DNA from: Aspidapion aeneum
Taxonomy: Eukaryota; Arthropoda; Insecta; Coleoptera; Brentidae
Assembly (NCBI GenBank): GCA_963576565.1
Contig: OY755039.1
Location: forward strand, 83,540,955 to 83,604,954
Direction: 5' to 3'
Length of the DNA stretch: 64,000 bases
This document shows, one piece after another, positions 1-62,035 of this stretch. Under the pieces are notes generated by a model. It saw only the letters and a list, made by a program, of their open reading frames with translations. It did not search any database and had not been told where the DNA came from. The stretch's first letter is position 1. Every line of letters starts with the position of its first letter. A program made the translations under genes and the position numbers.

Positions 1-1660
1 GGGTTAGTTGTCTCCCTTTTTGGATTTCACAAGATCATCTTAATGGTTGACAACTAAAACAACTGATCCGCCGTTTCCTCTTCTATGTTTTGCTGTGTAG
101 ATCAAGTGATTTATAACAATATTTAAAGTGACAGTAGTTTGATTTGTTTGTTGTCAGTTTTGGGCTTATAAAAAAGCCATCTTGACGGGTAACAAACAAG
201 ATCAGACGTAACCGTGAAATATGTTTCGTGGGTATTGTTGGAATCGGGTGATTTATAACAGTAAAATATTTAGACCGTAGGTTGGGTTAGTTGTCTCCCC
301 TTTTTGGATTTCACAAGATCATCTTAATGGTTGACAACTAAAACAACTGATCCGCCGTTTCTTCTTCTATGTTTTGCTGTGTAAATCGGGTGATTTATGA
401 CAATATTTAGAGTGACAGTAGTTTGATTTGTTTGTTGTCAGTTTTGGACTTATAAAAAAGCCATCTTGACGGGTAACAAACAAGATCAGACGTAACCGTG
501 AAATATGTCTCGTGGGTATTGTTGGAATCGGGTGATTTATAACAGTAAAATATTTAGACCGTAGGTTGGGTTAGTTGTCTCCCTTTTTGGATTTCACAAG
601 ATCATCTTAATGGTTGACAACTAAAACAACTGATCCGCCGTTTCCTCTTCTATGTTTTGCTGTGTAGATCAAGTGATTTATAACAATATTTAAAGTGACA
701 GTAGTTTAATTTGTTTGTTGTCAGTTTTGGGCTTATAAAAAAGCCATCTTGACGGGTAACAAACAAGATCAGACGTAACCGTGAAATATGTCTCGTGGGT
801 ATTGTTGGGATCGGCTGATTTATAACAGTAAAATATTTAGACCGTAGGTTGGGTTAGTTGTCTCCCCTTTTTGGATTTCACAAGATCATCTTAATGGTTG
901 ACAACTAAAACAACTGATCCGCCGTTCCCTCTTCTATGTTTTGCTGTGTAAATCAGGTGATTTATAACAATATTTAAAGTGACAGTAGTTTGATTTGTTT
1001 GTTGTCAGTTTTGGACTTATAAAAAAAGCCATCTTGACGGGTAACAAACAAGATCAGACGTAACCGTTAAATATGTCTCGTGGGTATTGTTGGAATCGGG
1101 TGATTTATAACAGTAAAATATTTAGACCGTAGGTTGGGTTAGTTGTCTCCCTTTTTGGATTTCACAAGATCATCTTAATAGTTGACAACTAAAACAACTG
1201 ATCCTCCGTTTCTTCTTCTAGGTTTTGCTGTGTAAATCAGGTGATTTATAACAATATTTAAAGTGCCAGTAGTTTGATTTGTTTGTTGTCAGTTTTGGAC
1301 TTATAAAAAAGCCATCTTGACGGGTAACAAACAAGATCAGACGTAACCGTTAAATATGTCTCGTGGGTATTGTTGGAATCGGGTGATTTATAACAGTAAA
1401 ATATTTAGACCGTAGGTTGGGTTAGTTGTCTCCCTTTTTGGATTTCACAAGATCATCTTAATAGTTGACAACTAAAACAACTGATCCTCCGTTTCTTCTT
1501 CTAAGTTTTGCTGTGTAAATCAAATGATTTATAACAATATTTAATATGGTCGTGGTTTAATCCGTTTGTTTTTTAAATTTTGTAACCTGAATATAACTTA
1601 ACGGCTAACAAACAAAATCACTCGATCCTTGTGTGTCTTATTGGGTATTATTGGAATCGG
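1..1660. repeat. 283-bp tandem repeat, about six copies
   Basis: Units begin at 1, 284, 568, 851, 1136 and 1419, each starting gggttagttgtctcc, so the period is 283-285 bp. The first five copies differ by only a few substitutions. The sixth matches to about 1545 and then decays until about 1660. The array runs off the left edge of the window, so its true length is unknown. No ORF crosses the units and I saw no hammerhead core in either strand. It could be a satellite or the internally repeated U3 of a large LTR. Confidence 0.95.
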
Positions 1661-3928: not shown

Positions 3929-5367
3929 TAAACAATCCCTCCTAGACTATACGGTTTACCAAAATTACACAAAAATAACATAACAATTAGACCAGTCTGT
4001 AGTTTTATTAACACCCTCATTCAACTTTTAGCCCGAGCTATTCTAAACATTTTTAATTAACTAACACAATTCAAACCTACTTATACCATAAAAAAAAACA
4101 CTTTACAATTAGTTAATACAACAATTTGATGTCTCCTATTTATATACATTTGTCCCAAAAAAGAAACAGTGGACTTAGTTATAGTGCTTCTAGAAAACAA
4201 GAACGTCAACCAACAAAACATTGTATACTCACGCACCCTTCTAAACCACTGTCTTTCTCAAGACTTTTACGTTTTTAACAACAACTTTTACAAACATTCA
4301 GATGGGCTTGCAACGGGGCTTTCTCTCTCAGGTTGGCTTTCAAATGTCTTTAGGGACAATTTAGAAAATAATCAAATAATCCCAGAAAATCCTGGAATAA
4401 AATTATGGAGATGATATTTAGACAATTGCTTAGCAATAATCAAAGGTAACCATGATACAGCAAACAAAATACTTAACAAAATTAATAAAATACACCCAAA
4501 CATTGGGATTACCGTTAAAACCGAGAGTAGTAACACTTTAAATATTTTAGACATCACAATTAAAAAGAAATCAACCTAATACCCGCCAACACCCAACACC
4601 TATGGAATCATAAAATCGCAGTCTTCAATTGCTACACTCACAGACTTGACGAAATACTACTTCAAAAATAAGAATTCACTAAAGAATTAAATATTATCAA
4701 ACAAATAGCAGTTAATAACGGTTACAACGATAAACTTATTGATAAAATTCAAAAAAGACACCCATTAAAAAGCACTAGAAAAAACAATAACAATCCCAAT
4801 ATAACTTCAACACATAACCAAAAATCATCACCCTTGCCTAATAAGAAATATTACAGTAAAGCTTTTATTAACAATAACCTCAATACCAAAATTGGCAATA
4901 TTCTCAAAAATCACAAATAAAAACAATTTAAAAAAAGCACTTACAAATAACAAAGATCCTATTAACGGCCTTAAGAAAAGCGGTGTCTACAACCTTAATT
5001 TCGGTGAATGCAATGCTTCATATATCGGAAGGACCTATCGCAGTCTCGAAACTCGAATTAAAAAACATATTCAAAGACCTAATAAATCTCAGTTTGGACA
5101 CCACATTGCATTCACAAAACATAATTTTAGTCCGAACACAAATACAAAAATCATAAAAAACATATTCTCAAAAAACTTTACGAGACTTGATTTTTGTTAG
5201 GATATAGAACTAAGAAAGAAATTAAAATCTAATAACCATTGCGTTAATGCACAGGTAAATCTTCAACGCAATTACATACCTTTTCATAGACTAATCCTAG
5301 GAATATATCAACAAAAACAACCACACAATACAACTAACCGTACAAGAATCCCAACAATTTTTTAATT
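3929..5367 (+). pseudogene. Penelope-like retroelement, reverse transcriptase and GIY-YIG endonuclease, decayed
   Basis: A 5'-truncated Penelope-like element. The reverse transcriptase opens with LYGLPKLHK (about 3947), a hallmark block of this family. A catalytic-Asp block FDVSYLYT follows near 4125, then FYKHSDGLATG (about 4280) and YLDN near 4415, where the family has YxDD. The C-terminal GIY-YIG nuclease is clear at 4960-5090: GVYNLNF, then YIGRTYRSLETRIKKH. One frame shift lies between 4130 and 4169, and in-frame stops occur at about 4412 and 5198. The tail stays readable in frame to about 5365. Loss of the second catalytic Asp and the stops make it dead. The family copies itself by target-primed reverse transcription using this nuclease. 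Confidence 0.88.
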
Positions 5368-16932: not shown

Positions 16933-18896
<1,964 letters not shown>

Positions 18897-25392: not shown

Positions 25393-25724
25393 TCGGACGG
25401 TTTTATGACTGTCGAACGACCTGATGGAACACTGCTAAAAAAACTTATAAAAAATCCAAAAAAGTTCTAGTTATAAATTGAAGATGGTGGCACATTAAAG
25501 TTCTTTTTTTCATTACACGACCATGCGAAAATAATTCGATCGCACTAACTTGCTTTTTGAAAAGGAAAATTTTATCCAAAAGTTTAAACTTAAAGTGGGC
25601 GAAAAGTTGTCCCGTATTTAACTTCAAATCCTTTCGTTTAAGGATAAAGAATATCTCAGTAAATAAATTGATTAAATGGTGGGTGTGCTTTCGGGCTGTT
25701 CGGCCGTCGTCGTTGGAAATTCAT

Positions 25725-25764
25725 TCTCGACGTTTCGGCATCTCGAGTGGATGGCATCTTCAGG
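25725..25764 (-). ncRNA. Hammerhead-like motif, disrupted by hAT insertion
   Basis: On the minus strand: CUGAAGA (complement of 25757-25763), a U, a GCCAUC/GAUGCC stem with one mismatch, then GAAAC and GUC (C17 at 25729). Stem I pairs GAGA (25725-25728) with UCUC, which now lies beyond the hAT insert at 26323-26326. The insert therefore separates stem I from its partner. Stem III would be only one or two base pairs, as in minimal hammerheads of Penelope-like elements. Confidence 0.5.
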
Positions 25765-26315
25765 CAGTGTTGCCACCCTCGACCCTGAGGTCTTCGGTAG
25801 AATGCTTCGAGAAAAATCGGTAGATTTCGGTAGATTTTTTAATCATCTTAGCAAGCAGTGCTGGAGAACTATCGAAAGTTTGGATAGATTTAGTAGGTAA
25901 ATTGTATATCTACGATTTGTTTTTACAGACAAAGTACCAAAATTAAGAATTAAATAAAAAAATTAGGTACAGATTAGGTAGATAATATTAGAAAAAAAAC
26001 CTCAGGTATAATAGCTTGATCTTTAATGCCGCTTGCGGTAGCCGGCTGATTATATCGCAAAATCCAAGAGATGGCGCCATAAATACACTTTTAAAAACAA
26101 TGCCTTGAAATAAAATTTTTATTCTACAAATAATCTTACATAAAAAGAATATTTTATTTATGGTGTTTTTTTTTAATCGCGATTACGAGGCGTATCAAAA
26201 AAAAACAAGTTTATATCGAAGAAAAAAATCTGTAGAAAACTATGGTAATTCGGTATGTAAAGTAAAAGGCTAAATCGGTAGATCTACCGAAAAATCGGTA
26301 GAGGTGGCAACGCTG
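25765..26315. mobile_element. hAT-type MITE, 551 bp, 8-bp target duplication
   Basis: The ends are CAGTGTTGCCACC and GGTGGCAACGCTG. The flanks carry the identical 8-mer TCTTCAGG at 25757-25764 and 26316-26323. An 8-bp TSD and CAG-type ends define hAT elements. There is no ORF for a transposase. The interior has repeated atcggtaga motifs near both ends, possible transposase-binding subterminal repeats. Confidence 0.9.
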
Positions 26316-26419
26316 TCTTCAGGAGATGTTGACTGTTTGTCGGCTTCTCGAAGACTGGTGAAGACCGAGCCGAACGGAACCGAACTACCAGTCCTTGGGA
26401 AGCCGACAAGCAGTCAACA

Positions 26420-26462
26420 TCTCCTGTAGATGCCATCCACTCGAGATGGCGAAACGTCGAGA
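26420..26462 (+). ncRNA. Hammerhead-like motif with mutated core
   Basis: It reads UCUC, then CUGUAGA, U, GCCAUC-loop-GAUGGC, GAAAC, GUC and GAGA. Stem I and stem II pair perfectly and the cleavage triplet is GUC. The fourth core position, A6, is U, which should inactivate it. It is the mirror partner of the motif at 25725. Confidence 0.5.
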
Positions 26463-26519
26463 ATGAATTTCCAACGACGACGGCCGAACAGCCCGAAAGC
26501 ACACCCATCATTGGACGCG

Positions 26520-27495
26520 CAAGCCTTTCACAATTTGTAATTTGATTAAATCTTTTTGTTTGAAAGTTGTAGAAAATGGTTAGGTATAAATAAAATTTCG
26601 CACTTGCATTTTCTATATTTATTTAAAAGACGTTTCGGGTAGTGGTGAGTGTTTTTTTTAGACTGCTAAATTTGTCTTCAAAAAATAAAATTTGAAATCA
26701 AGCAAAATTATATATGTCATCAGTGTTTTTCAAGCTTTAAATTTAGTACTTAACAAAAAGCCCCAATTGCTATTTGCTGTTTTTAGTCGTAGTAACTTTT
26801 AATTTTAAACAACTTTTCTTATTAACCTGTTCTGGTATATCTTAAAACAAAGGTATTTTAATCGTAACACTTTTTATCAAATCATCCTACTAAACCACCC
26901 AGTATATTAATTGATTTGTCTCATTTTCGTAACATGTTAGTTTAGGACAAAGCAGCAGCGATTCCCAGAAAATCAGAATCTAAATCGAATTTTTTTTTCA
27001 TTCTCGTTTATAGCTTACCCGAACTCTGTCCGTGGAGACACTGTAGGCCAGTTTTGTCGATGTAATGTTCCATCCATCTGGATTCAATATCCGAGTGTCG
27101 TAAAGTTAAAGCATTTTTCATTATTCACAAACATTCATACACCTAGCCAGGATTTGAACCCGGAGTGTGCGGCGTGTGAGGGCAATACACAAAACTACGC
27201 TACAAACTACAACAAACAAAAACCGCCAAATCAATTTTTTAATGAAATGTGGTGAAATAAACTGCACACCCACATTATGGCCAAATCCGAATCTTTCTTT
27301 TAACAATAAAAGGTAAAAATCGAGGAAACTTTCCTGAAAACTTTCGAAATTTATTTTTTCTTGTCAAAGATTAATAGAAATGGATTGCGCCTCATGCATT
27401 TGCTGGTTACACAGTTTTATCCCCAGCTTCCACGAGCTTTCCCTGAGTTTTATACCGACATGCCTCGGGTGATATATATTTATCGGCTTTCAGCT
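26520..27495. other. No confident feature
   Basis: Non-coding. Around 26625-26690 the minus strand has UGAAGA and, later, CCCGAAACGUC, which recalls a hammerhead frame but lacks a convincing stem II. Confidence 0.4.
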
Positions 27496-31624: not shown

Positions 31625-32440
31625 AAGCCCCATATGTCACAATAGAACATATCAATTTTGTTAAAAACATATTTGGCACTAAGCCACTTAGTGTAGTGAG
31701 CAACTTTAAAAGCAAAACTACATAAAAATTCATATAAAATAACTAATTTTAATTATTCACATAAAAAAACTATATATTTTTTTAATATTGCTATTTTCTA
31801 TCCCATTATATTTATAACATTTCTATCACTTAAGTTTATTTTTGTTTTTTTGATTGATTGATTGAAACATGCTTTATTGTCCAACAAAATCGTTTTTGAC
31901 AAAGCTAAATCTTTTATCTAATAGGGCAAAGTTCTAGAAATTTACTAGTAGTTACACATAGAAACAGGACAAACTAATCATGGTAAATACAATATTTCTT
32001 GATAAACAAAAGGAAGGCAAAAAAACAAATAAAAAACCTGCATACCTAGTATACCTAGTATAAAATAGTTAAAAAATTTAAAATAGGTTGCAAGAATGTA
32101 AAGATTAAAATGCTAAAATTAATATTGCATAGTCTCACACAAACATAATGGTTTTTTAAAACTACAGGTAAAAAATTTAAGTTACAAAAAAATCAAACAA
32201 AAAAAGTGCAAAAAGTCTATAAAAACAATAAAAAAAAACATAATAAAAAAACAAAATACAATAAAAAGCAGTCCTGAATAAAAGTAAAATATTTATAGTC
32301 AAGCATTAAAATTAATTTACCTATTAAACGCCTCTATATGTAAAAAATCTAAACTATAATTATTTTCTTACTTGATTTCCACACTTGGCTATTAGGGCTG
32401 TAAATTGACTATTAGGACCAGAGCTAAATTGAACATAAAC
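31625..32440. other. AT-rich sequence with a possible LINE 3' tail
   Basis: Near 31850-31900 the minus strand reads ggacaataaagcatgtttca followed by (atca)n. A polyadenylation signal before a short tandem tail resembles a non-LTR element 3' end. No coding part accompanies it. Confidence 0.35.
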
Positions 32441-32570
32441 AAGTTTAAAATTCAAACAAGTTTCATGGCTAATCGGGCAAAAAGGAGTTTTTTGTTTCTC
32501 TCATATTTTTCCGTGGGTAGCCCGAAAGCTTAACCTCACGGGGGTCCAAGATCTAATGGACACCTAATAA

Positions 32571-32616
32571 GTGTTGACAGTTAACTGTTTCGTCCTTATG
32601 GGACTCCTCAGAACAC
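32571..32616 (-). ncRNA. Hammerhead ribozyme (type I), copy 1
   Basis: Minus strand 5' to 3': stem I GUGUU; core CUGAGGA; stem II GUCC-CAUAA-GGAC; GAAA; stem III CAG-UUAA-CUG; U16.1; C17 (at 32576); stem I AACAC. All invariant positions (C3, U4, G5, A6, G8, A9, G12, A13, A14, A15.1 paired with U16.1, and a GUC triplet) are present, and all three stems pair without mismatch. Predicted cleavage lies between 32576 and 32575. Beyond an internal loop, ACC and GGU extend stem I, leaving room for loop-loop contacts. Confidence 0.9.
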
Positions 32617-33082
32617 TGCTGGTCAATGTGACAAATCTTGCGAAGTTAATTAGACGGTTTTGTCTCTAATTAAATGTAAATAATAAAAGAACTATAGCAA
32701 GAAGCGCCATCTACCGAGATACGAGAGAAACAAAAAACACAAGCAGGCGAAACACTGCTATACAATATCGATCAATGAAAAGATCGAATGCAAATAAAAG
32801 AAAACAACTATAGTCCGTGACCTACGACAGCTCTTTGTCTTTTCAGGCCGGATCAACGCATTTTGCATTTTTACCCGTCATCAAGACAGTGAGCGTCAAT
32901 CAACGGAATTTTTAAGCCAAATAATACTAACAAACGTGAAATTTCGTACCCGTGAATTTAAAAGCAAACAAGTTTCATGGCTAATCGGGCAAAAAGGAGT
33001 TTTTTGTTTCTCTCATATTTGTCCGTGGGTAGCCCGAAAGCTTAACCTCACGGGGGTCCAAGATCTAATGGACACCTAATAA

Positions 33083-33128
33083 GTGTTGACAGTTAACTGT
33101 TTCGTCCTTATGGGACTCCTCAGAACAC
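33083..33128 (-). ncRNA. Hammerhead ribozyme (type I), copy 2
   Basis: Identical to copy 1 through the core and all three stems; C17 lies at 33088. Self-cleavage at both copies would release a 512-nt monomer RNA. Confidence 0.9.
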
Positions 33129-33595
33129 TGCTGGTCAATGTGACAAATCTTGCGAAGTTAATTAGACGGTTTTGTCTCTAATTAAATGTAAATAATAAAA
33201 GAACTATAGCAAGAAGCGCCATCTACCGAGATACGAGAGAAACAAAAAACACAAGCAGGCGAAACACTGCTATACAATATCGATCAATGAAAAGATCGAA
33301 TGCAAATAAAAGAAAAAAACTATAGTCCGTGACCTACGACAGCTCTTTGTCTTTTCAGGCCGGATCAACGCATTTTGCATTTTTACCCGTCATCAAGACA
33401 GTGAGCGTCAATCAACGGAATTTTTAAGCCAAATAATACTAACAAACGTGAAATTTCGTACCCGTGAATTTAAAAATCAAACAAGTTTCATGGCTAATCG
33501 GGCATAAAGGAGTTTTTTGTTTTTCTCATATTTTTCCGTGGGTAGCCCGAAAGCTTAACCTCACGGGGGTCCAAGATCTAATGGACACCTAATAA

Positions 33596-33641
33596 GTGTT
33601 GACATTTAACTGTTTCGTCCTTATGGGACTCCTCAGAACAC
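33596..33641 (-). ncRNA. Hammerhead ribozyme, copy 3, stem III weakened
   Basis: The core and stems I and II match copies 1 and 2. One substitution changes stem III from CAG-UUAA-CUG to CAG-UUAA-AUG, losing the loop-closing pair of a three-pair stem. It is likely slower or inactive as a monomer. Confidence 0.8.
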
Positions 33642-34056
33642 TGCTGGTCAATGTGACAAATCTTGCGAAGTTAATTAGACGGTTTTGTCTCTAATTAAAT
33701 GTAAATAATAAAAGAACTATAGCAAGAAGCGCCATCTACCGAGATACGAGAGAAACAAAAAACACAAGCAGGCGAAACACTGCTATACAATATCGATCAA
33801 TGAAAAGATCGAATGCAAATAAAACAAAACAACTATAGTCCGTGACCTACGACAGCTCTTTGTCTTTTCAGGCCGGATCAACGCATTTTGCATTTTTACG
33901 CGTCATCAGGACAGTGAGCGTCAATCAACGGAATTTTTAAGCCAAATAATACTAACAAACGTGAAATTTCGTACCCGTGAATTTAAAAATCAAACAAGTT
34001 TCATGGCTAATCGGGCAAAAAGGAGTTTTTTGTTTCTCTCATATTTTTCCGTGGTT

Positions 34057-42768: not shown

Positions 42769-45215
42769 TCACGCTCGAGAAGCGGCAAGTGCGCGGAAAT
42801 GTTGGTGCGTGTTGGTTTTGAAACGGTTCAGGTTGTAACCTGCAGGGAAAACTGTCGCAGGGAGTTTATTCCACAGCGATGCTGTTCTCCAGAGATATGA
42901 ATTCTGATATAATGAGGTTCTTGGTGCCTCTATTGTGACAATAAATTGATGGTTACCGTCTGTTTGACGTGTTCGCCTAGTAGGTGCTACTCCCGGGGGG
43001 ATTATACGTGCCAGCTCTTCAGAGCATTTTCCGTGATTATACCTGTAGAAGAGAGATATATCACCCACAGTTCTTCGATGTTTGAGACTATCCAAGCTAC
43101 GGGTAAGTGCGGGGTCATTGATCAGCTTGATAGCTCGTTTTTGCACGGTGTTCAAAAGCAGTAAGGTATGTTTGGGTGCCGCACTCCATATATGTGAGCA
43201 GTACTCCATAGTTGGTCGAATCTGGGCTTTGTAGAGTATCAGCAGTTGGCTTGGTGTATACAGATGTCTTGTACGAAATAGCACCCCAAGATTTTGGGAC
43301 GCCCTTTTAGCTATATCTGCCACGTGACTGTGCCAAGACATGTTGGTCTCTGCAGTGACTCCTAAGATGTTCAACTGGCTCTGCAGTGCGACAGCACTTC
43401 CAGATAGCATGACGTTTGGCTCACCGGTGCTGGTCTTTTTCGAAAACAGGGCTGCTTGGGTTTTCTGCGCGTTGAACTGTACAAGGTTTTTGTTGCCCCA
43501 GTCCTCTATTATCTCCAAGTCGTTATTTATCTGCGATATTTCAGTTAGTCTAAGGTAATGGAATTCACGTGCGGAGAGACATGTGGGTGGTATGACTGAG
43601 GAGACTACATTGCCATCATCTGCAAAGCAATAAAGTGGATTTACTGTTTTATCTATGAGGTCATTTATGTAAATCAGAAAAAGTGTTGGCGAAAGGATTG
43701 CTCCCTGTGGCACACCAGCATTTATTTGGTAAGAGTTGGAGTTCCGGCCATCCAGTGCAACATAAATGGATCTATCCTTAAGGTAACTTTCAAACCAAGT
43801 GCAAAGTCTCGGCGACAATCCCGTTGCTTTGAGCTTGTTGAGCAGATTTTCATGCCAGACTTTATCGAATGCTTTAGATATATCTAAGGCAATTGTTCTT
43901 GTTTCACCTCGCAACTCAATCGCTTTTTGCCATAAGTGAGTGACGTATGTAAGTAAATCGCCAGTTGACCTATATTTTCGAAATCCGTATTGCTTGTCGT
44001 TGATAATTTTGTACTTTTCCAAGTACTTGGTTAGGTGATGGTTTACAACTCTTTCCATTACTTTTGATATCACCGGAAGTAGAGCAATTGGTCTATAGTT
44101 TAACGGATCTGTCTTTTTTCCTTTCTTTGGAATGGGTTGTACTGCGGCAGACTTCCATGATGATGGATATACTCCTTGCCTATAAGATAAATTGAATAAT
44201 TTTGCGAAAGTTGGGGTGAGTTCGCTAGCACAATTTTTGAGTACTATCGCGGGAATGCCATCTGGACCCATTGCTTTGTTTGTATCCAACTTTTTAAGGG
44301 ATTTTCGTATTTCTCTGTGACAAAAGGGTACCTCTGGCATACTGTGGGAAACCCTTTCAATGAACGGTGGAGTTTTTCCATTTGGCACTGTTAGGTTTGA
44401 GTTGGAGGAAAAGATTTTGGCCAGTATATTGGCTTTTTCCACTGATGTTGTGGCTAAGTGAGTATTTTTATCTGTAAGTGGTGGTATGGATGACTTGGTG
44501 AAGTTTGAGCCAACGGCTTTTGCAAGAGACCAAAAGGACCTAGAACTACTTGGACAATTCAGCAACCTGTTTTTTATTCTTTGATTGTATGTTTCTTTGG
44601 CGGCGTCAATAGTAATTTTGCAACTATTTCTGGCTTCTATAAATTCTGTGTGGTTTTGAGCGGTTTGTTGTCGTTTCCAAAGGTTATATGCTCTGTGTTT
44701 TTTCTGTACAGCCGTTTGACACTGGCTGTTGAACCAAGGTTTTGTATTAGCTCTGCGTTTTATTGTATGTGGGATATATGCATCCATTCCAGATAAGATT
44801 ACTTTTGTAATTTCATTACAGCAAATAGTGGGATCAGCCGTTTTAAAGCAAACCTCTTGCCATGGAAAATCCAGGTAAAACTGTTTCAGGTCATTCCATT
44901 TTGCCGATTTATAGTGCCACATTTTACGAGGAAGTGATTGTTGGCTTGGCGGTATGAACATTTCGCACTTTGTTCTTATAAGTTTATGATCGGATGAACC
45001 AAGTGGGGGATCTACTTGAATTGTGTACAAGTCAGGATTTGTAGTTTGGAACAAGTCTAAAAGCGCTGCAAATTCACCCCTTTCTGAGATACGGGTAGGT
45101 TCATCGACAAGCTGCGTTAGACCACAACTTATGGCAAAAGCTTCTGCTTCCCTGCCTTCATTATCTGTTTTGTTGTGGTGTTTTAGCCAGGGTATATTGT
45201 GGACGACACAATTTC
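42769..45215 (-). pseudogene. Reverse transcriptase part of the non-LTR element
   Basis: An open frame of over 800 codons, of which 761 follow the Met at 45054. The upstream part is the end of the endonuclease (GSSDHKLI). Reverse-transcriptase blocks follow: NYRPIALLPVISKVMERVV, FRKYRSTGDLL, ALDISKAFDKVWHENLL, GVPQGAILSPTLFLIYINDL and CFADDGNVVSS, with both catalytic Asp present. The C-terminus (SLKHRRTVGDISLFYRYNHG, then SLWNKLPATVFPAGYNLNRF) is shared by many insect CR1/Jockey-group elements. It nicks DNA and copies its own RNA at the nick. It has no stop inside, so damage is limited to the frame break upstream. Confidence 0.9.
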
Positions 45216-45737
45216 CGCATGTGGATAGTTAGACTGTATACTATCACATTTTTCGGATAATGTCGCAAAAAAGTTTTGATACTCGGTGTTACTTGGCGGT
45301 CGGTAGAGGCAGCAAATGAACTTAGTCGATGACTTTGAGGTGAATTTCAGCCATATGATATCGAGGTTCGCTGGTTCTAGCTTCTCCTCTCGATGACATG
45401 AAAGTTCATTCTTAATGTACACACAGATCCCAAAATTATGTCGAAATCGGTGGTGTAGGTCATAGCCGGGATAAAGATAGTTCACAGTAGGTGTTGCAGA
45501 ACTGATTTTAGTTTCAGTGAGAACAAGGATGTCAGGTCTTTGTTCTTCAAGATGTTGGTGAACTGAATTCATGTTGGTACTTAATCCTCTTATATTGCTA
45601 AAATCAATTCTGAGTTGAGTTTTTGGTCTTCTTTTAATATCTTTGCATGAAGGACCCCCAGGATCACCCGACGCCCGGAGATCCGAGTGGTCGGGTATTT
45701 TACCTCCGGAATATTTTGATCCTGGAGGCGCCATCAT
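45183..45737 (-). pseudogene. AP-type endonuclease part of the non-LTR element, out of frame
   Basis: From an ATG at 45737: a short Pro/Gly/Lys-rich lead, then SNIRGLSTN (metal-binding Asn), DILVLTETKI (catalytic Glu) and FICCLYRPPS. The frame ends prematurely at 45183. Just before this, around 45200-45215, the sequence jumps into the frame of the downstream ORF. The usual GDFN segment, which holds catalytic residues, is absent, so a short deletion removed it and shifted the frame. The start choice is the first ATG after the 5' hairpin. Confidence 0.85.
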
Positions 45738-50813: not shown

Positions 50814-53340
50814 CAGCTTCAAAAAAACAATAGAAAAACACTTAACTATTTTCAACAACTGCTCAAATCCCGAAATAAATTTCACAGCCAAGTTACCTAA
50901 GTAATACCACAGGGTGTTCACAGGCTCAGAGCATTTGATTTGACGTTATAAAGCGCTCGGCAGCTTTTTCTATTTTGTTGAATGGTTTGCATTGAAGAGC
51001 ATGCTTCGAGGCGTCAAATTAAACGCTCGACCCTCTGAAAACCTTAGGTCGGTGCTTCTGCTTATAACCTTATTTATATAGTGTGACGGTTATCCCAAAA
51101 AGGCGTTAAATATTCCTTCAAAGTTATAAATTGCATGTGGAAATTTTGGTTGACGCAATTTAGTCTGAACAATTACGCAAACATTGTAATGGGTTCGTTG
51201 CTCTGGGTTCCTAGGCCGAACTGAACCGAACCGAACCGGATCGTAAAGTCCCGCAACAAAACGTACCGAACCGGATCGTACCGTGCCGCACCAAAACGTA
51301 CCGAACCGGATCGTATCGTCCCGCAACAAAACGTACCGAACCGGATCGTACCGTCCCGCAACAAAACAATTGGTTGGGATGAAAAAAACCACACCTTCAG
51401 TGTGGATTCGAAAAAACCACATTTAGCAATTTTTATTATAGGGAATCGCATAAGACCAAAATTGCAAAATTTTGAAAATTCATATCTCACAAACTATACA
51501 TGTTATCAGCAAACGCACCGAGTTACAGTATAGTGGTGCCATAGAGATGCGAAAGAACTACACCTTCCGTGTAGATTCGGAAAAACGTCATTTAGCGATT
51601 TTTAGTATAGGGAATCCAATGAGACCAAAATGGCAAAACTTTGAAAGTTCATATCTCACAAACTATACATGTTATTAGCAAACGCACCGAGTTACAGTAT
51701 AGTGGGGCCATAGAGATGCGAAAAAACCACACCTTCAGTGTAGATTCGGAAAAACGTCATTTAGCGATTTTTAGTATAGGGAATCCAATGAGACCAAAAT
51801 GGCAAAACTTTGAAAATTCATATATCACAAACTTTACATGTATCAGCAAACGCACCGAGTTGCAGTATAATGGGGGCATAGGATGCGAAAAAACCACACC
51901 TTCCGTGTAGATTCGGAAAATCGTCATTTAGCGGTTTTTAGTTTAGGGAATCCAATGAGACCAAAATGACAAAACTTTGAAAATTCATATCTCACAAACT
52001 ATACATGTTATCAGCAAACCCACCGAGTTACATTATAGTGAGGCCATAGAGATGCGAAAAAATCACACCTTCAGTGTAGATTCGGAAAAACGTCATTTAG
52101 CGATTTTTAGTATAGGGAATCCGATGAGACCAAAATGGCAAAACTTTGAAAATTCATATCTCTCAAACTATACATGTTCTCAGCAAACGCACCGAGTTAC
52201 AGTATAGTGGTGCCATAGAGATGCGAAAGAACTACACCTTCCGTGTAGATTCGGAAAAACGTCATTTAGCGATTTTTATATCCAATGAGACCAAAATGGC
52301 AAAACTTTGAAAATTCATATCTCACAAACTATACATGTTATTAGCAAACGTGCCGAGTTACAGTATAGTGGTGCCATAGAGATGCGAAAAAATCCCACCT
52401 TCCGTGTAGATTCGGAAAAACGTCATTTAGCGATTTTTAGTATAGGGAATCCCACGAGACCAAAATGGGTCAGCGAAACCTAGTTTTCGGCCTAGGAACC
52501 CAGAGCAACGAACCCATTACGATGTTTGCGTAATTGTTTAGACTAAATTGCATCAACCAAAATTTCCGCATGCAATTTATAATTTATAACTTTGAAGGAA
52601 AATTTAATGCCTTTTTGGGATAATCGTCACAATAGTAATATAAGGTGGGCCAAGAAAAATCTTGCTCCACTTTTTTCGGCTGTAGTTTCTTTATTCTTTG
52701 TTCGATTTTTGTTATTTCGATCTCTATCGAAAGTTAGGTAAGTGTACTTAATTTGACATATTGACAAAAAGGCCACTCAACTGCAAAAATTGATACTTTG
52801 TGCTCATGCCAAAGGCGAGGTGAAGGACTACAATATAGATACTGGTATGTATAAGCGTTACTCTCTTTTAAAATTCGTTGCGTCCTAGAACTCATACACC
52901 AGTATTTACTAAGACCTTAAGACTTAGCATTGTAGACCGGGTTTAAGTATCAAGTCTATAGACTTGTTACCGACCGCTTTAGGTATATTTTTTAATACTC
53001 ACAGGTCAAATAGCTGCAAAGATTTGGTTCACCCTAATGTGCAATATGATAGTAAACATTTCTCAGTGTTTCTACTCATATAAATTCAAATTAACTTTGG
53101 AAATAAAGAATAACCACATAAAAATTTTGTAACGAAATGTCATTTTATGGAAACTTAGTCCGTGTTAGCTCCCGCTAAATTTCGCGGTTGTTTTTAATTT
53201 TAAATCCACACAATTGGATGACGGACAGAGTACATTTTTCGCGCATTGGACATGCGCACCAAGAATCAGTGAGATCCTTTTCTACCGCCTCGAGAAAATG
53301 GCGTGTTAATTTACTTTCTCCAACTATTACAAACAGCTTA
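50814..53340 (+). repeat. 2,527-bp segmental tandem duplication, first copy
   Basis: 50814-53333 matches 53341-55860 with only a handful of single-base differences (for example gtgcc/gtacc near 51541 and one added T in a T-run). Both begin cagcttcaaaaaaac. The first copy ends inside the 5' part of the BEL LTR (53164-53333). A 7-base filler, cagctta, joins the two. It contains the TIR element at 51082 and a ~130-bp hairpin element at about 50925-51045. Confidence 0.97.
51082..52631. mobile_element. TIR element filled with ~169-bp satellite, copy 1
   Basis: It begins tgtgacggttatcccaaaaa and ends with the inverse (tttttgggataatcgtcaca). The TIRs are about 140-150 bp and include ttgctctgggttcctaggcc. 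ATAG on both sides may be a 4-bp target duplication. Inside are four ~35-bp units (cgtaccgaaccggatcgtac), then six to seven units of ~169 bp with the core gattcggaaaaacgtcattt. As 169 is not a multiple of three, no protein spans the units. The superfamily is unknown. Confidence 0.82.
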
Positions 53341-55860
53341 CAGCTTCAAAAAAACAATAGAAAAACACTTAACTATTTTCAACAACTGCTCAAATCCCGA
53401 AATAAATTTCACAGCCAAGTTACCTAAGTAATACCACAGGGTGTTCACAGGCTCAGAGCATTTGATTTGACGTTATAAAGCGCTCGGCAGCTTTTTCTAT
53501 TTTGTTGAATGGTTTGCATTGAAGAGCATGCTTCGAGGCGTCAAATTAAACGCTCGACCCTCTGAAAACCTTAGGTCGGTGCTTCTGCTTATAACCTTAT
53601 TTATATAGTGTGACGGTTATCCCAAAAAGGCGTTAAATATTCCTTCAAAGTTATAAATTGCATGTGGAAATTTTGGTTGACGCAATTTAGTCTGAACAAT
53701 TACGCAAACATTGTAATGGGTTCGTTGCTCTGGGTTCCTAGGCCGAACTGAACCGAACCGAACCGGATCGTAAAGTCCCGCAACAAAACGTACCGAACCG
53801 GATCGTACCGTGCCGCACCAAAACGTACCGAACCGGATCGTATCGTCCCGCAACAAAACGTACCGAACCGGATCGTACCGTCCCGCAACAAAACAATTGG
53901 TTGGGATGAAAAAAACCACACCTTCAGTGTGGATTCGAAAAAACCACATTTAGCAATTTTTATTATAGGGAATCGCATAAGACCAAAATTGCAAAATTTT
54001 GAAAATTCATATCTCACAAACTATACATGTTATCAGCAAACGCACCGAGTTACAGTATAGTGGTACCATAGAGATGCGAAAGAACTACACCTTCCGTGTA
54101 GATTCGGAAAAACGTCATTTAGCGATTTTTAGTATAGGGAATCCAATGAGACCAAAATGGCAAAACTTTGAAAGTTCATATCTCACAAACTATACATGTT
54201 ATTAGCAAACGCACCGAGTTACAGTATAGTGGGGCCATAGAGATGCGAAAAAACCACACCTTCAGTGTAGATTCGGAAAAACGTCATTTAGCGATTTTTA
54301 GTATAGGGAATCCAATGAGACCAAAATGGCAAAACTTTGAAAATTCATATATCACAAACTTTACATGTATCAGCAAACGCACCGAGTTGCAGTATAATGG
54401 GGGCATAGGATGCGAAAAAACCACACCTTCCGTGTAGATTCGGAAAATCGTCATTTAGCGGTTTTTAGTTTAGGGAATCCAATGAGACCAAAATGACAAA
54501 ACTTTGAAAATTCATATCTCACAAACTATACATGTTATCAGCAAACCCACCGAGTTACATTATAGTGAGGCCATAGAGATGCGAAAAAATCACACCTTCA
54601 GTGTAGATTCGGAAAAACGTCATTTAGCGATTTTTAGTATAGGGAATCCGATGAGACCAAAATGGCAAAACTTTGAAAATTCATATCTCTCAAACTATAC
54701 ATGTTCTCAGCAAACGCACCGAGTTACAGTATAGTGGTGCCATAGAGATGCGAAAGAACTACACCTTCCGTGTAGATTCGGAAAAACGTCATTTAGCGAT
54801 TTTTATATCCAATGAGACCAAAATGGCAAAACTTTGAAAATTCATATCTCACAAACTATACATGTTATTAGCAAACGTGCCGAGTTACAGTATAGTGGTG
54901 CCATAGAGATGCGAAAAAAACCCACCTTCCGTGTAGATTCGGAAAAACGTCATTTAGCGATTTTTAGTATAGGGAATCCCACGAGACCAAAATGGGTCAG
55001 CGAAACCTAGTTTTCGGCCTAGGAACCCAGAGCAACGAACCCATTACGATGTTTGCGTAATTGTTTAGACTAAATTGCATCAACCAAAATTTCCGCATGC
55101 AATTTATAATTTATAACTTTGAAGGAAAATTTAATGCCTTTTTGGGATAATCGTCACAATAGTAATATAAGGTGGGCCAAGAAAAATCTTGCTCCACTTT
55201 TTTCGGCTGTAGTTTCTTTATTCTTTGTTCGATTTTTGTTATTTCGATCTCTATCGAAAGTTAGGTAAGTGTACTTAATTTGACATGTTGACAAAAAGGC
55301 CACTCAACTGCAAAAATTGATACTTTGTGCTCATGCCGAAGGCGAGGTGAAGGACTACAATATAGATACTGGTATGTATAAGCGTTACTCTCTTTTAAAA
55401 TTCGTTGCGTCCTAGAACTCATACACCAGTATTTACTAAGACCTTAAGACTTAGCATTGTAGACCGGGTTTAAGTATCAAGTCTATAGACTTGTTACCGA
55501 CCGCTTTAGGTATATTTTTTTAATACTCACAGGTCAAATAGCTGCAAAGATTTGGTTCACCCTAATGTGCAATATGATAGTAAACATTTCTCAGTGTTTC
55601 TACTCATATAAATTCAAATTAACTTTGGAAATAAAGAATAACCACATAAAAATTTTGTAACGAAATGTCATTTTATGGAAACTTAGTCCGTGTTAGCTCC
55701 CGCTAAATTTCGCGGTTGTTTTTAATTTTAAATCCACACAATTGGATGACGGACAGAGTACATTTTTCGCGCATTGGACATGCGCACCAAGAATCAGTGA
55801 GATCCTTTTCTACCGCCTCGAGAAAATGGCGTGTTAATTTACTTTCTCCAACTATTACAA
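53341..55860 (+). repeat. 2,527-bp segmental tandem duplication, second copy
   Basis: Partner of 50814-53340. It runs without a break into the complete 5' LTR, so this copy holds the original junction with the BEL element. Confidence 0.97.
53609..55158. mobile_element. TIR element filled with ~169-bp satellite, copy 2
   Basis: Exact counterpart of 51082-52631 at an offset of 2,527 bp, copied by the segmental duplication and not by a separate transposition, since the flanks are duplicated too. Confidence 0.85.
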
Positions 55861-56384: not shown

Positions 56385-56690
56385 CAACATTTCTCATTTC
56401 TGTGATTAGATGTGTTCCATATCATTTCGATATTTAAAACAATTTTCATCAATTGCGATAAATTAGTGCATATTTTCGACAATTCGTCATTTTTCTATTT
56501 CAGAAGCACTAATTTAGCGTTAATTGTATATTTACCGACATTTCTGTGATTAGATGTGTTCCATATCATTTCGATATTTAAAACAATTTTCATCAATTGC
56601 GATAAATTAGTGCATATTTTCGACAATTCGTCATTTTTCTATTTCAGAAGAATAATTTAGCGTTAATTGTATATTTACCGACAATTTCGT
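56385..56690 (+). repeat. ~150-bp direct repeat in the BEL leader
   Basis: The block from catttctgtgattagatgtg to taattgtatatttaccgaca occurs twice in succession (about 56390 and 56540), differing by a few bases around gaagcacta/gaagaat. It lies between the 5' LTR and the gag start. Confidence 0.9.
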
Positions 56691-56708
56691 CATTTCAAAG
56701 GTAAAATC

Positions 56709-57733
56709 ATGTCTATCAAAAAAGCCGTGCAAAAACGCAAGGGTTTTTTATCGGCGATTACCGAGTGTTATGTGTTTTCACAGACCGCGGCAACGGACGC
56801 AAAAGCGAGAAACGAGTTTCAAGTGAGGTATTCCGACTTGGATGAAACTTTCGATAAATGCATGTTGGCACATAATGATGTCATTATGATGATAGACGAC
56901 TCGGACGACGAGGAGCTTAAAACGCAAGATGCGATCCTTTCAGAAGCTCGTAAATATTTTTATGCGTGTAAGGAAGTTTACTCTGAAATATTTCCGGTTG
57001 AGGCTCCATCCTTTTCGGGATCATATGTTCGACAAAACGAAACTCCAAAACTCAAAGAGTTAGGTATTCCCATATTTCGAGGTGATAAAAAATTATGGCC
57101 AAGCTTTTTCGATCTTTTTAATAACATTATAGATCAAAATCAAAGTCTAAGTAACGTCCGAAAACTTCAATATTTATTTTCATATCTCGAGAATGAGCCT
57201 TTAAAATTGATATCAGGGATTAGCTTATCTGATCAAAATTATAAAATTGCTTACGACAAATTAGTCAATAGATATCAAAACAAGCGAGACCTCGCAAATG
57301 ATGCTTTAAGCACAATTATGAACTCTACATTAAAAAACGAGTCAGCTAAAGAATTGCGTAATTTAATTGACACCTTTTCAGAATCCCTAGCCTAGAAATT
57401 TTAAAATCACTTAGCTTTGACGTTGTCAGTTGGGACTTTATTATTTTTTCATTCTGTTAGAAAAATTGGATATTCCGACGCGTTCAAATTTCGAAATGAG
57501 TCACGCCAATACTAATACCGAAATTTCCACTTTTCAGTCACTTTTTCAATTTCTAGAAAAAAGATGTAAAGTTTTGAAATCAGTTCCTCCATCAACAGCA
57601 CCCAAAAAGGTGCCTACCTATCAAAAATCAAATTCTATGCCAAATCAGTTTGGGCAAAAGCCTACCTATAAATCATCCAATTCGCCTTTTATAGGACTGG
57701 CTGGCACCTCAACTAATTCAAGTACGGGAATAA
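56709..57733 (+). pseudogene. BEL/Pao gag region
   Basis: Starts MSIKKAVQKRKGFLSAITEC at 56709. The mid region KELGIPIFRGDKKLWPSFFD, followed by LFNNII and LENEPLKLISGI, is the conserved BEL/Pao gag segment that forms the particle shell. The first frame stops at 57395. The next part (LLEKLDIPTRSNFEMS, FQFLEKRCKVLKSVP) is in another frame to about 57733, so at least two frame changes break it. The start was chosen as the first ATG in the frame with gag similarity; an in-frame ATG lies earlier at 56667. Confidence 0.88.
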
Positions 57734-60700
57734 TGTTTTCGGTGTAATCAAGGTCACGTGCTTTCGAAATGTCAAACATTTGTTGACCTATCGCCTATCG
57801 ATCGCTTATCTTTCGTCAAGCAGAAAAAATTATGTCTAGCGTGTTTTCATCCCTCGCATGGGGTAGACACGTGCAAATCAAAATATTCACGCAGGACTTG
57901 AAATAGTAAAAGGCACCACACTTTAACTCATATCTTAGAAACTAATAAAGATTCTGGAAGCCAAGATACTAGTCCTGTCATTCACACTCCACCTGTCAAT
58001 AATCTTCATGTGTCATTAAATACCTCAGGACTTTCAGGTACCTTTCTTTTATGCACCGCCATAATAGATGTTATGGACGGTTGCGGAAATTTTCAACCTG
58101 TAAGGGCACTGCTTGATTCTGGATCACAGACAGGATTCATCAGTGAAAAGTGTATTCAGCGTCTAAATCTTCCTAGGCGAAGTTACACCACTGAAATATT
58201 CGGATTAAATCAAATGTCTTCTCTTACTTCCAAAGGGCTCGTTCAATGTCACATTAAGCCACAAGGACAGGTCACTCCTTTACTTAATTTCGAAGCAACT
58301 GTTGTTCCACAACTATGTTCGAATATGCCTACATTCACTTTGAACGATAATCAGTGGAAACACTTGGAAAACCTTAAACTTGCCGACTCATCTTATTTCA
58401 AATCTAGACCTGTGGACCTAGTTATTGGTTGCGAGCTATTCGCACAGATATTCAAGGAGAGCAGGGTTTTTGGACAAATAGGGCAACCTTCAGCCCTTGA
58501 AACCATCTTTGGCTGGGTCGTCATGGGAAAAGTGGACGAAGTAGGTAGTCTTACGGAACGAACCAGTTGTTTTTTAACGAGTCATTCACCTCCCTTGGAG
58601 GTCATTATCCCTAGGTTTTGGGAAATCGAACATTTGCCTAAAAAACAAATCTTATCAAAGGAAGAAAAACAAGCGGAATCAATTTTTACTGCGAGTGTCG
58701 TACGGCAACCGAGCGGTAGATTCATGGTAGATCTCCCGTTTAAAGATAAAATAAACCCTGACCTAGGAAATACTTATCCGCAAGCTTATCGTAGATTTTT
58801 ACTTCCAGAAAATAGATTACTCAAAAATCCTGATCTGTACACTGCCTATTCTAGTTTCATGCAAGACTATATCGATTCTAATCACATGAGTCTAGTTTTA
58901 CCTAGTCAACCAAAAGTCGACGTATCATGTTTTTTGGCACATCATTGCGTACTAAAGCCGGAAAGCTTAAGTACAAAATTAAGGGTAGTCTGGGATTGTT
59001 CGGCAGTCACCCCAAAGAATATTAGTCTCAATGACACGTTGTTGTCTGGACCGAAACTTCAAAAGGATATTGCTTCTTTACTCCTTACGTTTCGTCTTAA
59101 TCCTATTGCCTATATTGCTGATATCAAACAGATGTTCCATCAAGGCCTTATCAATCCTTATCACCGTCCTTATCAAAGGATATTGTGGAGGTTTTCTCCA
59201 CAGGACCCACTTTCAGTGTGGGAACTTTCTACTGTCACTTTTGGCATGACATGCTCACCTTTTCTAGCCATGCGTACATTAAATGAGCTGGCAGAGAGAG
59301 ACAAGGAACGTTTTCCTATGGCTAGTACTGTTCTAAAAACGTCAATTTACATCGACGATATCTTGGGAACTAGCCCTTCGCTTTCTGAAGCTCTTTCCCT
59401 TCAAACGGAACTCAATGATTTGTTTAAGTCGGGAGGATTTGAACTTAAAAAATGGGCAAGCAATTGTCCTGAGTTATTGGCAACATTGCCAGAATCCGAT
59501 CGTCAAATGCCTCTCTCTTTTGACAAGGATGAACCACACTTTATCAAAGTTTAAGGCCTTCAGTGGCATCCAAAAAACGACATTTTTTCTTATCAATGCC
59601 AAATGAAGGACAAACCCCCAACTAAACGTTCTATTTTATCTATCATAGGAACAATCTTCGATCCCTTAGGTTTTCTTTGTCCCTTGTTGCTACAAGCAAA
59701 ATTTATTTTGCAATAGTTGTGGATATCGAAAATAGGCTGGGACGAAGAACCAGATTCTTCTATCATCGACTCTTGGAACAAACTTCGTTCGGAATTCCCG
59801 CTTCTTTCCAATTTTCAATTACTTCGACAAATCAAACTGTCAAAAACCAATACCTATCAAATCATAGGCTTCTGTGACGCTTCAATTCGAGGCTACGCAG
59901 GCGTCGTATATTTTCGTGTAGAAGAGAAAAACAATATATCTGTTTCTCTTATATCTGCAAAATCTAGGGTCGCGCCTATAAAGTCACAAACTTTGGCTAG
60001 GCTAGAACTCCTAGGCGCATTTTTTTTAAGCGAATTAATTGACTTCTTTTTATCTAGCTATGAAGGAAAAATAACTTTTACAAATATCGTTACTTTCTGC
60101 GATTCGCAAGTCGTATTGCACTGGCTTTCATCCCCTCCTAATCGCTGGCAAACCTTTGTTGGAAATCAAGTCAGTAGAATCCAAGAAATCATTTCCTCAA
60201 ACTCATGGCGCTACATTCCTTCTGCTTTAAATGCAGCCGATATTGCGTCACGAGGGGCCACCCCTTCACAGCTCATTTCACATGACATCTGGTGGAACGC
60301 ACCGTCGTTTTTGTGGTCTCCCGAAAACGAATGGCCCGATTTTCATAAATCAAAAATGCCGATTGATTTCGGAGATATTAATCTGGAGGAAAAGCCAAAG
60401 GTCTGTTGCAATGTGATAATTGACTTTAACTTTTTAGATCAGCTTCTTATTAAATATTCATCTATATCAAAAATTCATCGTATCATTTGTTATGTCCTTC
60501 GAATAGTGAACTTTTTTCAAAACCATTCCTATCAAAAACCCACTAATCTACCGGACCAAAAAATTATTTTTGAAAATATTGTTTTTCCTACCACCGGTGA
60601 GATGCAAAGTGCGTTATACCTTCTTATCTAACGCGTTCAAGGTTCTTGTTTTTCTGAGCTTTTTTCCGCGTTATCTAAGGATAAACCAATACCGAAACCT

Positions 60701-62035
60701 TCTCGAAAACTTTCACCTTTTCTTGATGAAAATAATATCATTATAGTCGGTGGCAGATTACAAAAATCTGACCTTTTGTCTTATTCTGCAAAACACCCCG
60801 TCTTACTTTCGAGTAACCATCGTTTAACTACTCTTCTTATCGAGTCCACTCATAGACAATACCTTCATCCTGGGTTTAAAACATTACATAATCTGCTTTT
60901 AGAGCAATTTTGGATATTATCTGCCAGACGGGCAATTCAAAGAACCATATCCAAGTGCTTGCAATGCTTTAGAATCAACCCTAAACCCTATAGACCGCCC
61001 AGAATGAGTTCTCTTCCCGCTCATCGAATCAATCAACTTAAACCTTTTTCGAGTGTAGCTATCGACTTTTGTGGACCTTTCTTTGTGATTCCTCATCGTT
61101 ACCGTGATTGTAAAGCTTTCAAATCGTATGTCTGTGTGTTTGTCTTTACGGCCACACATTGCGTGCATTTGGAATTAACCATGGAACTGTCCACCGAAGG
61201 GTTTGTAGGTGCATTCCATCGATTCATTTCCAGACGTGGAAGCGTGACGCAATGCTGGTCAGATCAGGGCAGTAATTTTATAGGGTTTCGTAACCAATTA
61301 CTTGATTACGCAAGAAGTGCGTCCACCAGACTTTCTATTCGTTGGCATCTGGGACCCCCTCTCAGTCCACATTTCAATGGCCTGGCAGAAGCTGGCGTCA
61401 AAAGTTTTAAAACTCACTTTGTTCGAGTTGTCGGCGACCAGAAGTTGTCTATCATGGAAATGTCCACCCTTACATGTCACATAGAGGCTGTACTTAATAG
61501 TCGCCCTTTATCTCCTGCCTCTTCAGACCCACACGATCTTCAACCTCTTACCCCTGGGCATTTTTTGACCCTTGAACCCCTTAATTCGGAAATTCCGGAG
61601 TCAGATTTGTCCGAGGTTCCCCTAAATCGGCTCTCGAGATGTCAACTAATACAAAAACTACATAATGATTTTTGGAAACGGTATTCTGTAGAGTATTTGC
61701 ATACGCTACAACAGCGACACAAGTGGGCTGATTCGTCCCCAAATCTCAAATTAAATGATTTGGTTATCATAACGAGTGATCACATCCAATCACCTTTGAA
61801 ATGGCCAGTCGGTCGGGTCATCGAACTGCATCCCGGCGGAGACGGTCAAGTGCGTGTTGCGACGGTACGAACGGCTACCGGTGTTTACAAGCGGCCAGTT
61901 GTAAAACGTGCCGAATTAAAACTAATTTTCATTTTTCTACCTATTACCGGGTATTACAATAGGTTTTTCTTTCTTTTTATTTTTTTTGAATTTTTGTTTG
62001 TTTGGTTTGCCTTTTTCGGGTTTCGTTATCTCTAA
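57734..62035 (+). pseudogene. BEL/Pao pol region: zinc knuckle, protease, reverse transcriptase, RNase H, integrase
   Basis: One frame carries everything. Zinc knuckle: CFRCNQGHVLSKC and CLACFHPSHGVDTC (57734-57880). Aspartic protease: ALLDSGSQTGFIS (about 58108). Reverse transcriptase: LRVVWDCSA (about 58980), FHQGLINPY and YIDDILG (about 59348). RNase H-like region: GFCDASIRGYAGVVYF and FCDSQVVLHWL, then NAADIASRG. Integrase: the zinc-binding HRQYLHPGFK...CLQCF, then Asp in VAIDFCGPFF, Asp in CWSDQGSNFIG and Glu in GLAEAGVKSF. A DUF5641-like tail includes WPVGRVIELHPG. In-frame stops lie at 57899-57901, 59552-59554, 59714-59716 and 60629-60631. Catalytic residues are otherwise intact. Confidence 0.94.

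What the first reader, a model, noticed from the sequence alone, without database searches (positions are those of the whole stretch)
32445..34056. Retrozyme-like 513-bp tandem array with a hammerhead core
Seen: three full, nearly identical 512-513 bp units, each with CUGAGGA, a four-pair stem II, GAAA, a three-pair stem III with a UUAA loop, GUC and a five-pair stem I on the minus strand. Copies 1 and 2 meet every known core requirement. Known: animal retrozymes are non-coding tandem repeats with type I hammerheads that yield circular RNAs. Inference: this array may be expressed as 512-nt self-cleaving, possibly circular RNA and spread by retroposition with help from another element. This is the best candidate in the window for an undescribed system.
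Basis: partly seen in the sequence, partly recalled or inferred. Interest (0 to 1): 0.88.

Follow-up and report, generated by a model that had tools for sequence, protein, structure and literature searches.

The report
Hammerhead retrozyme spread by Penelope elements
The array is one of thousands of copies of a small non-coding mobile element carrying a predicted self-cutting RNA motif, and its insertions carry the fingerprint of the Penelope retrotransposon machinery, long suspected but not shown to move such elements in animals.

Summary
Window 32453-34054 is three 512-513 bp units plus 59 bp, each unit with a type I hammerhead motif on the minus strand. It is not a local satellite: copies are dispersed over many contigs, and a hammerhead pattern has 10,294 exact genome matches, 0 in the control. 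Insertions often have AT-rich target duplications, most often 12 bp. RNA-sense 3' ends fall at two sites 35 nt apart, A and B. Two-armed insertions, with 3' ends pointing outward, nearly always pair one A with one B: 28 of 29 with both ends classed. A Penelope-like element (PLE) in the same genome has the same anatomy: two 3' ends 32-35 nt apart, outward arms, and one A plus one B with 13-14 bp duplications in 4 of 4 pairs fetched. This matches the two adjacent start sites shown in vitro for a lizard PLE (PMC11167929). Best reading: a metazoan retrozyme mobilised by a PLE. Self-cleavage and circular RNA are untested. The kind is known; the direct footprint of its helper, and the A-with-B rule, appear new.

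The parts
32453..34054 (-). Whole retrozyme insertion: one arm of 3.1 units; RNA sense on the minus strand; sense 3' end at site A (left, uncertain by up to 9 nt), 5' end inside the fourth unit (right)
32458..32969 (-). unit copy 1 (512 bp)
32970..33482 (-). unit copy 2 (513 bp; reference unit, positions 1-513)
33483..33995 (-). unit copy 3 (513 bp; one stem III pair lost in its hammerhead)
33996..34054 (-). 5'-truncated fourth copy, 59 bp
32570..32617 (-). hammerhead motif, copy 1; predicted cut between 32576 and 32575
33082..33129 (-). hammerhead motif, copy 2; predicted cut between 33088 and 33087
33595..33642 (-). hammerhead motif, copy 3 (weakened stem III)
32453..32457 (-). site A (sense ..CTTGTTTG): 3' end of this insertion; internal repeats at 32965-32969, 33478-33482 and 33991-33995
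   Evidence: positions read
32931..32935 (-). site B (sense ..CACGTTTG), 35 nt downstream of A in RNA sense; also 33443-33447 and 33956-33960; used as an end in other insertions
   Evidence: positions read
33033..33135 (-). conserved island (unit 64-166): hammerhead plus the downstream region; unit 66-167 is identical in a subfamily (L062) that is 77% identical overall
32999..33018 (.). one strand of a predicted 20-bp stem (unit 30-49), pairing with 33231-33250 (unit 262-281); repeated in the other units
25675..26537 (.). Separate PLE-derived two-armed insertion in the same window: A end on the left, B end on the right, with a PLE-type hammerhead motif; comparison for the retrozyme ends

Best explanation
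A non-autonomous, non-coding metazoan retrozyme. Its minus-strand RNA, as a multimer or circle that still spans the hammerhead site, is bound by the protein of a Penelope-like element (probably Poseidon type). The enzyme makes a staggered cut of about 12 nt in AT-rich DNA and starts reverse transcription at two internal RNA sites, A and B, 35 nt apart. In two-armed insertions one target strand is extended from A and the other from B. The two cDNA arms are joined in the middle, giving outward 3' ends and target duplications. Shown here: hammerhead motif, dispersal, duplications, the two end sites, A/B pairing, and the same anatomy in a co-resident PLE. Inferred: that the PLE protein acts in trans, the dimer geometry, ribozyme activity, RNA circles.
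For: Dispersed copies, full-length ones mostly 96-100% identical, on many contigs. Target duplications of 8 bp or more in 29 of 54 loci, against a mean of 2 in swapped-flank controls (maximum 7 in 200 rounds). With a wider flank window (no control run), 32 of 57 loci, mode 12 bp, 86% AT. Of 65 distinct uncut loci: 36 two-armed (28 A/B, 1 A/A, 0 B/B, 7 with one odd end) and 29 one-armed (13 A, 11 B, 3 odd, 2 of a second family that read through A to a B-like end). The first-pass figure, 27 of 28, gave p = 1e-7 against 1/2. In the 26 two-armed loci whose junctions are fixed by a duplication of 8 bp or more, 25 are A/B. PLE of the same genome: ends ..CACCCACC(ATT) and ..TTTCACAATTTG, 32-35 nt apart; four fetched two-armed PLE copies each have one A and one B end with 13-14 bp duplications; by eye, 20 '- then +' neighbour pairs and no '+ then -' within 5 kb among 111 listed matches. 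PMC11167929: a lizard PLE cuts and extends both strands and starts at two adjacent internal sites that explain the PLE 'tail'. Hammerhead region 94.7% identical in 20 divergent segments against 82.4% outside the island.
Against: No significant direct sequence similarity between the PLE 3' module and the retrozyme: 389 of 500 shuffles scored as high or higher, and the antisense control scored higher. The window copy itself has no clear target duplication (5-bp match only). The hammerhead fold (-9.8 kcal/mol) is less stable than a competing fold (-17.6) in a 73-nt window, and Rfam scores are below gathering. The loci were chosen by match to the unit or the hammerhead, so fragments lacking them are under-sampled. 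A ends are not single-base sharp: they run up to about 10 nt past GTTTG, and two (L064, L067) stop short of it. PMC11167929 reports no difference in start site between the strands, so the A/B rule goes beyond what that paper shows.
Confidence: 0.86

Rival explanations
1. An ordinary tandem satellite with a chance hammerhead, amplified and dispersed at DNA level (unequal exchange, extrachromosomal circles).
For: Head-to-tail units with low divergence within an array (mean 1.7% in one arm).
Against: Dispersed short insertions with target duplications and ends at two sites, inverted arms with outward ends; conserved hammerhead island.
Confidence: 0.02
2. A SINE-like element moved by a LINE, with inverted arms from twin priming.
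For: Twin priming (recalled from L1 biology) also gives inverted arms and target duplications; a LINE is present in the window at 42769-45737.
Against: Both outer ends lie at defined internal sites 35 nt apart, one of each per insertion; no added poly-A or simple-repeat 3' tail is seen at the junctions printed for 32 loci, though some duplications are themselves A/T runs; a PLE in the same genome shows the same signature.
Confidence: 0.05
3. The unit is a fragment or solo repeat of a PLE rather than a retrozyme.
For: Same insertion anatomy; PLEs also carry a hammerhead next to their start sites (PMC11167929).
Against: No coding potential (longest stop-free run 39 aa in RNA sense, 82 aa antisense); the PLE hammerhead in this genome lacks a normal stem III (GAAACGTC) and its 3' module has no significant similarity to the unit.
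Confidence: 0.07
4. Template question: uncut multimeric transcripts, not circles, are what is reverse transcribed, and the ribozyme is dispensable for movement.
For: 76 of 92 arms copy through the hammerhead cut site and none of 92 arm 5' ends lies within 5 nt of it; PMC11167929 found that ribozyme mutants still insert and that uncut RNA is the main substrate for the lizard PLE in vitro.
Against: The same data fit a circle equally well. Cleaved linear monomers are disfavoured by both, but the sampling required a hammerhead or a good unit match. The conserved island argues that the ribozyme matters at some step.
Confidence: 0.45

Closest known systems
Metazoan non-LTR retrozymes (coral, mussel, axolotl; PMC7229834, PMC7761336)
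   Same: Short non-coding tandem repeats with a type I hammerhead, thousands of motifs, low GC, target duplications longer than 4 bp, a short stem III whose stem plus loop is palindromic (CAGTTAACTG).
   Different: Unit is 513 bp against 150-450 bp reported; insertions are often two-armed; both start sites and the PLE-type footprint can be read. PMC7761336 states that animal retrozymes show no conserved motif from which the helper could be deduced.
Penelope-like elements of the Penelope/Poseidon clade (PMC11167929)
   Same: Two adjacent internal start sites about 30-40 nt apart, both target strands extended, AT-rich targets, hammerhead upstream of the start sites, tandem organisation.
   Different: The retrozyme has no RT or GIY-YIG ORF; its hammerhead has a stem III; no significant sequence similarity at the start module of the PLE in this genome.
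Plant LTR retrozymes (PMC4918200; search listing only)
   Same: Small non-autonomous element with hammerheads.
   Different: Plant ones have type III hammerheads, LTRs and 4-bp duplications (as described in PMC7229834 and PMC7761336).

Membership tests
Metazoan non-LTR retrozyme | type I hammerhead in each unit | tested here: met
   Rfam RF00163 on all three copies, E 0.0024-0.003 though below gathering; strict core in copies 1 and 2
Metazoan non-LTR retrozyme | short non-coding tandem repeat, 150-450 bp | tested here: inconclusive
   Tandem and without a long frame, but 513 bp exceeds the stated range
Metazoan non-LTR retrozyme | many dispersed copies | tested here: met
Metazoan non-LTR retrozyme | target duplications longer than 4 bp, low GC | tested here: met
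   29 of 54 loci above control, mode 12 bp; GC 0.35 in window 32001-34000
Metazoan non-LTR retrozyme | absence of LTR, PBS and PPT | not tested
   no scan for PBS or PPT was made
Metazoan non-LTR retrozyme | self-cleavage and expression as circular RNA | not testable with these tools
   no RNA data or bench work
Penelope-like element (autonomous) | ORF with telomerase-like RT and GIY-YIG endonuclease | tested here: not met
   no frame long enough in the unit
PLE-type integration (works like) | two adjacent internal start sites, 30-40 nt apart | tested here: met
   sites A and B, 35 nt apart; PLE in the same genome 32-35 nt. Read from genomic ends, not from an assay
PLE-type integration (works like) | both target strands extended, AT-rich target | tested here: met
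   36 of 65 loci two-armed; duplications 86% AT
Plant LTR retrozyme | type III hammerhead in LTRs with 4-bp duplications | tested here: not met
   type I motif, duplications mode 12 bp

The most novel reading that the evidence does not exclude
Penelope-type integration is a paired reaction: one RNP, probably a protein dimer, starts reverse transcription at RNA site A on one target strand and at site B on the other within the same event, and it does so on ribozyme-processed circular or multimeric non-coding RNA. This would explain the PLE 'tail', the inverted arms and the tandem retrozyme arrays with one mechanism.
Probability: 0.55. Interest if true: 0.82.

Novelty: new member of a known kind. 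Interest (0 to 1): 0.72.

Why it matters
Which enzyme moves animal retrozymes has been open: the authors who described them named PLEs only as strong candidates because no motif pointed to the helper (PMC7229834, PMC7761336). Here the ends of the insertions point to it, and the presumed helper is present in the same genome in many copies with long open frames. The strict A-with-B pairing also suggests how PLEs complete both sides of an insertion, a step that PMC11167929 leaves open. The system is small enough to test in vitro.

Tried and rejected
Direct homology of the PLE start module to the retrozyme: an eyeballed match (AGCC..CGAAA before A, CGAAA..TTTCAC..TTTG before B) was not significant (389 of 500 shuffles at least as good; antisense control scored higher), so it is not used as evidence.

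Circle against multimer from unit heterogeneity: units within an insertion are alike. Of 273 within-insertion differences, 159 were private, 48 seen in one other insertion and 66 in two or more, so some shared variants do differ between units of one insertion. This does not separate a circle from a multimer.

Arm 5' ends pile up at unit 25-27 (just before the 20-bp stem) and at 315; read as possible RT pausing, but the first also sits at a run of A, so not claimed.

Host species: not identified. COX1 (PF00115) requests did not complete; the PLE and LINE proteins match insects, other arthropods and (PLE only) lizards among named hits, none above 66% identity.

Counting PLE copies with and without the tail genome-wide: one of two patterns was answered (1,733 matches), the other never was, so no ratio is given.

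Corrected on recheck: L062, first counted A/A, reads on through the whole A-B segment on its left side and is A/B; L031 and L070, first counted as A ends, read through A to a B-like end and belong to a second family. L021 stays A/A, but its right flank is an AT microsatellite.

Full report
Observation. The sequence shows three head-to-tail units, 32458-32969, 32970-33482 and 33483-33995, and a 59-bp partial copy. The minus strand of each unit carries a type I hammerhead motif; stem I pairs over 6 bp, stem II over 4, stem III over 3 with a UUAA loop in copies 1 and 2, and copy 3 loses one stem III pair. Rfam RF00163 matches all three copies at E 0.0024-0.003, but at 25 bits against a gathering score of 34. 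Below, positions 1-513 count along copy 2 on the plus strand; the RNA sense runs the other way.

Genome context. The window lies in a 1.286-Gb genome of 149 contigs. The unit matches dispersed places on many contigs: 133 matches listed, 1,922 first-look candidates of which 40 were scored. The pattern CTGANGAGTCCN{3,9}GGACGAAACN{4,20}GTC has 5,044 forward and 5,250 reverse exact matches and none in the reversed control; these are motifs, not insertions, since arrays hold several. The species is unknown; named relatives of its retroelement proteins are mostly arthropod, with lizards too for the PLE.

Anatomy of insertions. I held 80 loci; 14 repeat another locus, which leaves 66, and one was cut by its edge (L015). 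The 65 others (57, 8, rechecked) divide into 36 two-armed and 29 one-armed. In a two-armed locus an array in one orientation abuts an array in the other, so that both outer ends are RNA 3' ends. Outer 3' ends fall at two sites: A, ending ..CTTGTTTG, and B, ending ..CACGTTTG, 35 nt further downstream in RNA sense. Two-armed: 28 A/B, 1 A/A, 0 B/B, 7 with one odd end. One-armed: 13 A, 11 B, 3 odd, and 2 (L031, L070) of a second family that read through A to a B-like end. In the 26 two-armed loci whose junctions are fixed by a duplication of 8 bp or more, 25 are A/B; the other (L040) has A and an odd end. A ends run up to about 10 nt past GTTTG, and two stop short of it. The window copy is one-armed and ends at A.

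Target duplications. With 22-nt flanks, 29 of 54 loci share 8 or more bases across the insertion, against a mean of 2 (maximum 7) when flanks are swapped among loci (200 rounds). With 26-nt flanks, 32 of 57 loci qualify (no control was run for that width); the commonest length is 12 bp (14 of 32) and the duplications are 86% A+T. The window copy shows only a 5-base match.

Constraint on the ribozyme. A subfamily (L062) with 77% identity to the window unit is identical to it over unit 66-167, which holds the hammerhead and the region downstream. In 20 divergent segments (below 90% identity; some come from one locus or one subfamily) the hammerhead region averages 94.7% identity, the island 92.5%, the rest 82.4%. 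A mosaic origin of L062 cannot be excluded from that one comparison; the wider set argues against it. Against function: the unconstrained 2D fold prefers another structure (-17.6 against -9.8 kcal/mol for 73 nt; -9.8 against -9.2 for the 48-nt core), and a 111-nt stretch folds no better than shuffles (z -1.35). Stem III plus its loop is a perfect palindrome, so a double hammerhead is possible, as published for axolotl (PMC7229834, parts 2-4 of 6 read).

The helper. A scan of the fetched loci for open frames found a protein in L077 with a GIY-YIG domain (Pfam E 1.1e-5). Its listed relatives carry RVT_1, PF26215 and in part GIY-YIG, and include Anolis proteins at 58-61% identity; 'Poseidon type' is inferred from that and from PMC11167929, not from a tree. 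The genome search scored 111 of 15,472 candidates, at 92-100% identity, with open frames up to 880 aa and tandem spacing of 2,600 bp in several places. By eye, 20 neighbouring pairs in that list are '- then +' within 5 kb and none is '+ then -'; likewise all 9 close opposite pairs (under 2 kb) among the listed places of a PLE 3'-module pattern (which lists only the first of 1,733). So the PLE has the same outward two-armed form. In held sequence its 3' ends are of two kinds..CACCCACC(ATT) (L070, window 25675) and ..TTTCACAATTTG (L067, L077, window 26537), 32-35 nt apart. Eight short stretches at the ends of four two-armed PLE copies show one A and one B end in each, with shared flanks of 13, 13, 14 and 13 bp. 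The window insertion at 25675-26537 is also A/B; L067 is B on one side and odd on the other.

Link to published biochemistry. PMC11167929 (parts 1-3 of 4 read) shows that a purified Poseidon PLE of Anolis cuts and extends both strands and starts reverse transcription at two adjacent internal RNA sites; the segment between them is the optional 30-40 bp 'tail' of genomic PLEs. It also reports that ribozyme mutants still insert, that the ribozyme needs protein in vitro, and that the protein is predicted to dimerise. The retrozyme layout is the same in order: hammerhead, then about 120 nt, then A, then 35 nt, then B (from the sequence).

Mechanism. Most likely, PLE protein takes retrozyme RNA in trans, one strand of the staggered cut is extended from A and the other from B, and the arms are joined. 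Because 76 of 92 arms copy through the hammerhead site and no arm 5' end lies within 5 nt of it (the 57 loci), the template is probably not a cleaved linear monomer; a circle and an uncut multimer both fit. Sampling favoured loci that hold the hammerhead or a good unit match, so that count is biased.

Known or new. Animal retrozymes are known. PMC7229834 calls PLEs a strong candidate helper, PMC7761336 (passages) says that their repeats show no conserved motif to deduce the helper, and PMC8969392 (passages) says they may rely on PLEs. My searches (listings seen) listed no title or abstract opening that gives the footprint described here; Craig et al. 2021 on PLE structures (PMC8557442) is not held and could not be checked, and bioRxiv is not held.

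Noticed in passing
window 25675-26537: PLE-derived two-armed insertion with A end left and B end right, PLE-type hammerhead, near-identical flanks (aaattgatta / aatttgatta); much of its middle does not match the PLE sequence held in L077.
   Followed up: partly
window 4463-5068: Degenerate PLE-like coding remnant (27% identity to the L077 protein).
   Followed up: no
L031 1248-1680 and L070 (its minus strand): A second hammerhead family that shares the hammerhead-A-B module with the 513-bp unit but has a different body: possible modular exchange.
   Followed up: partly
unit 241-260 (window 33210-33229): A second conserved block (94% in divergent segments) around GCGCCATCTACC; it resembles, from memory, insect CTCF-like motifs; possibly an internal promoter or insulator site.
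   Followed up: no
window 51230-52468 and 53757-54995: The same tandem-repeat block occurs twice, 2,527 bp apart, as if by a local direct duplication.
   Followed up: no
window 1-1544: Satellite array with a 142/284-bp period running off the window's left edge.
   Followed up: no
window 17469-17958 and 18652-18757: ACAG microsatellites, each next to a 119-bp repeat array; ACAG-type arrays also lie near retrozyme copies in L068 and L071.
   Followed up: no
window 42769-45737 (-) and 56667-62035 (+): A LINE with RT and endonuclease frames, and a Pao-type retroelement split over several frames.
   Followed up: no
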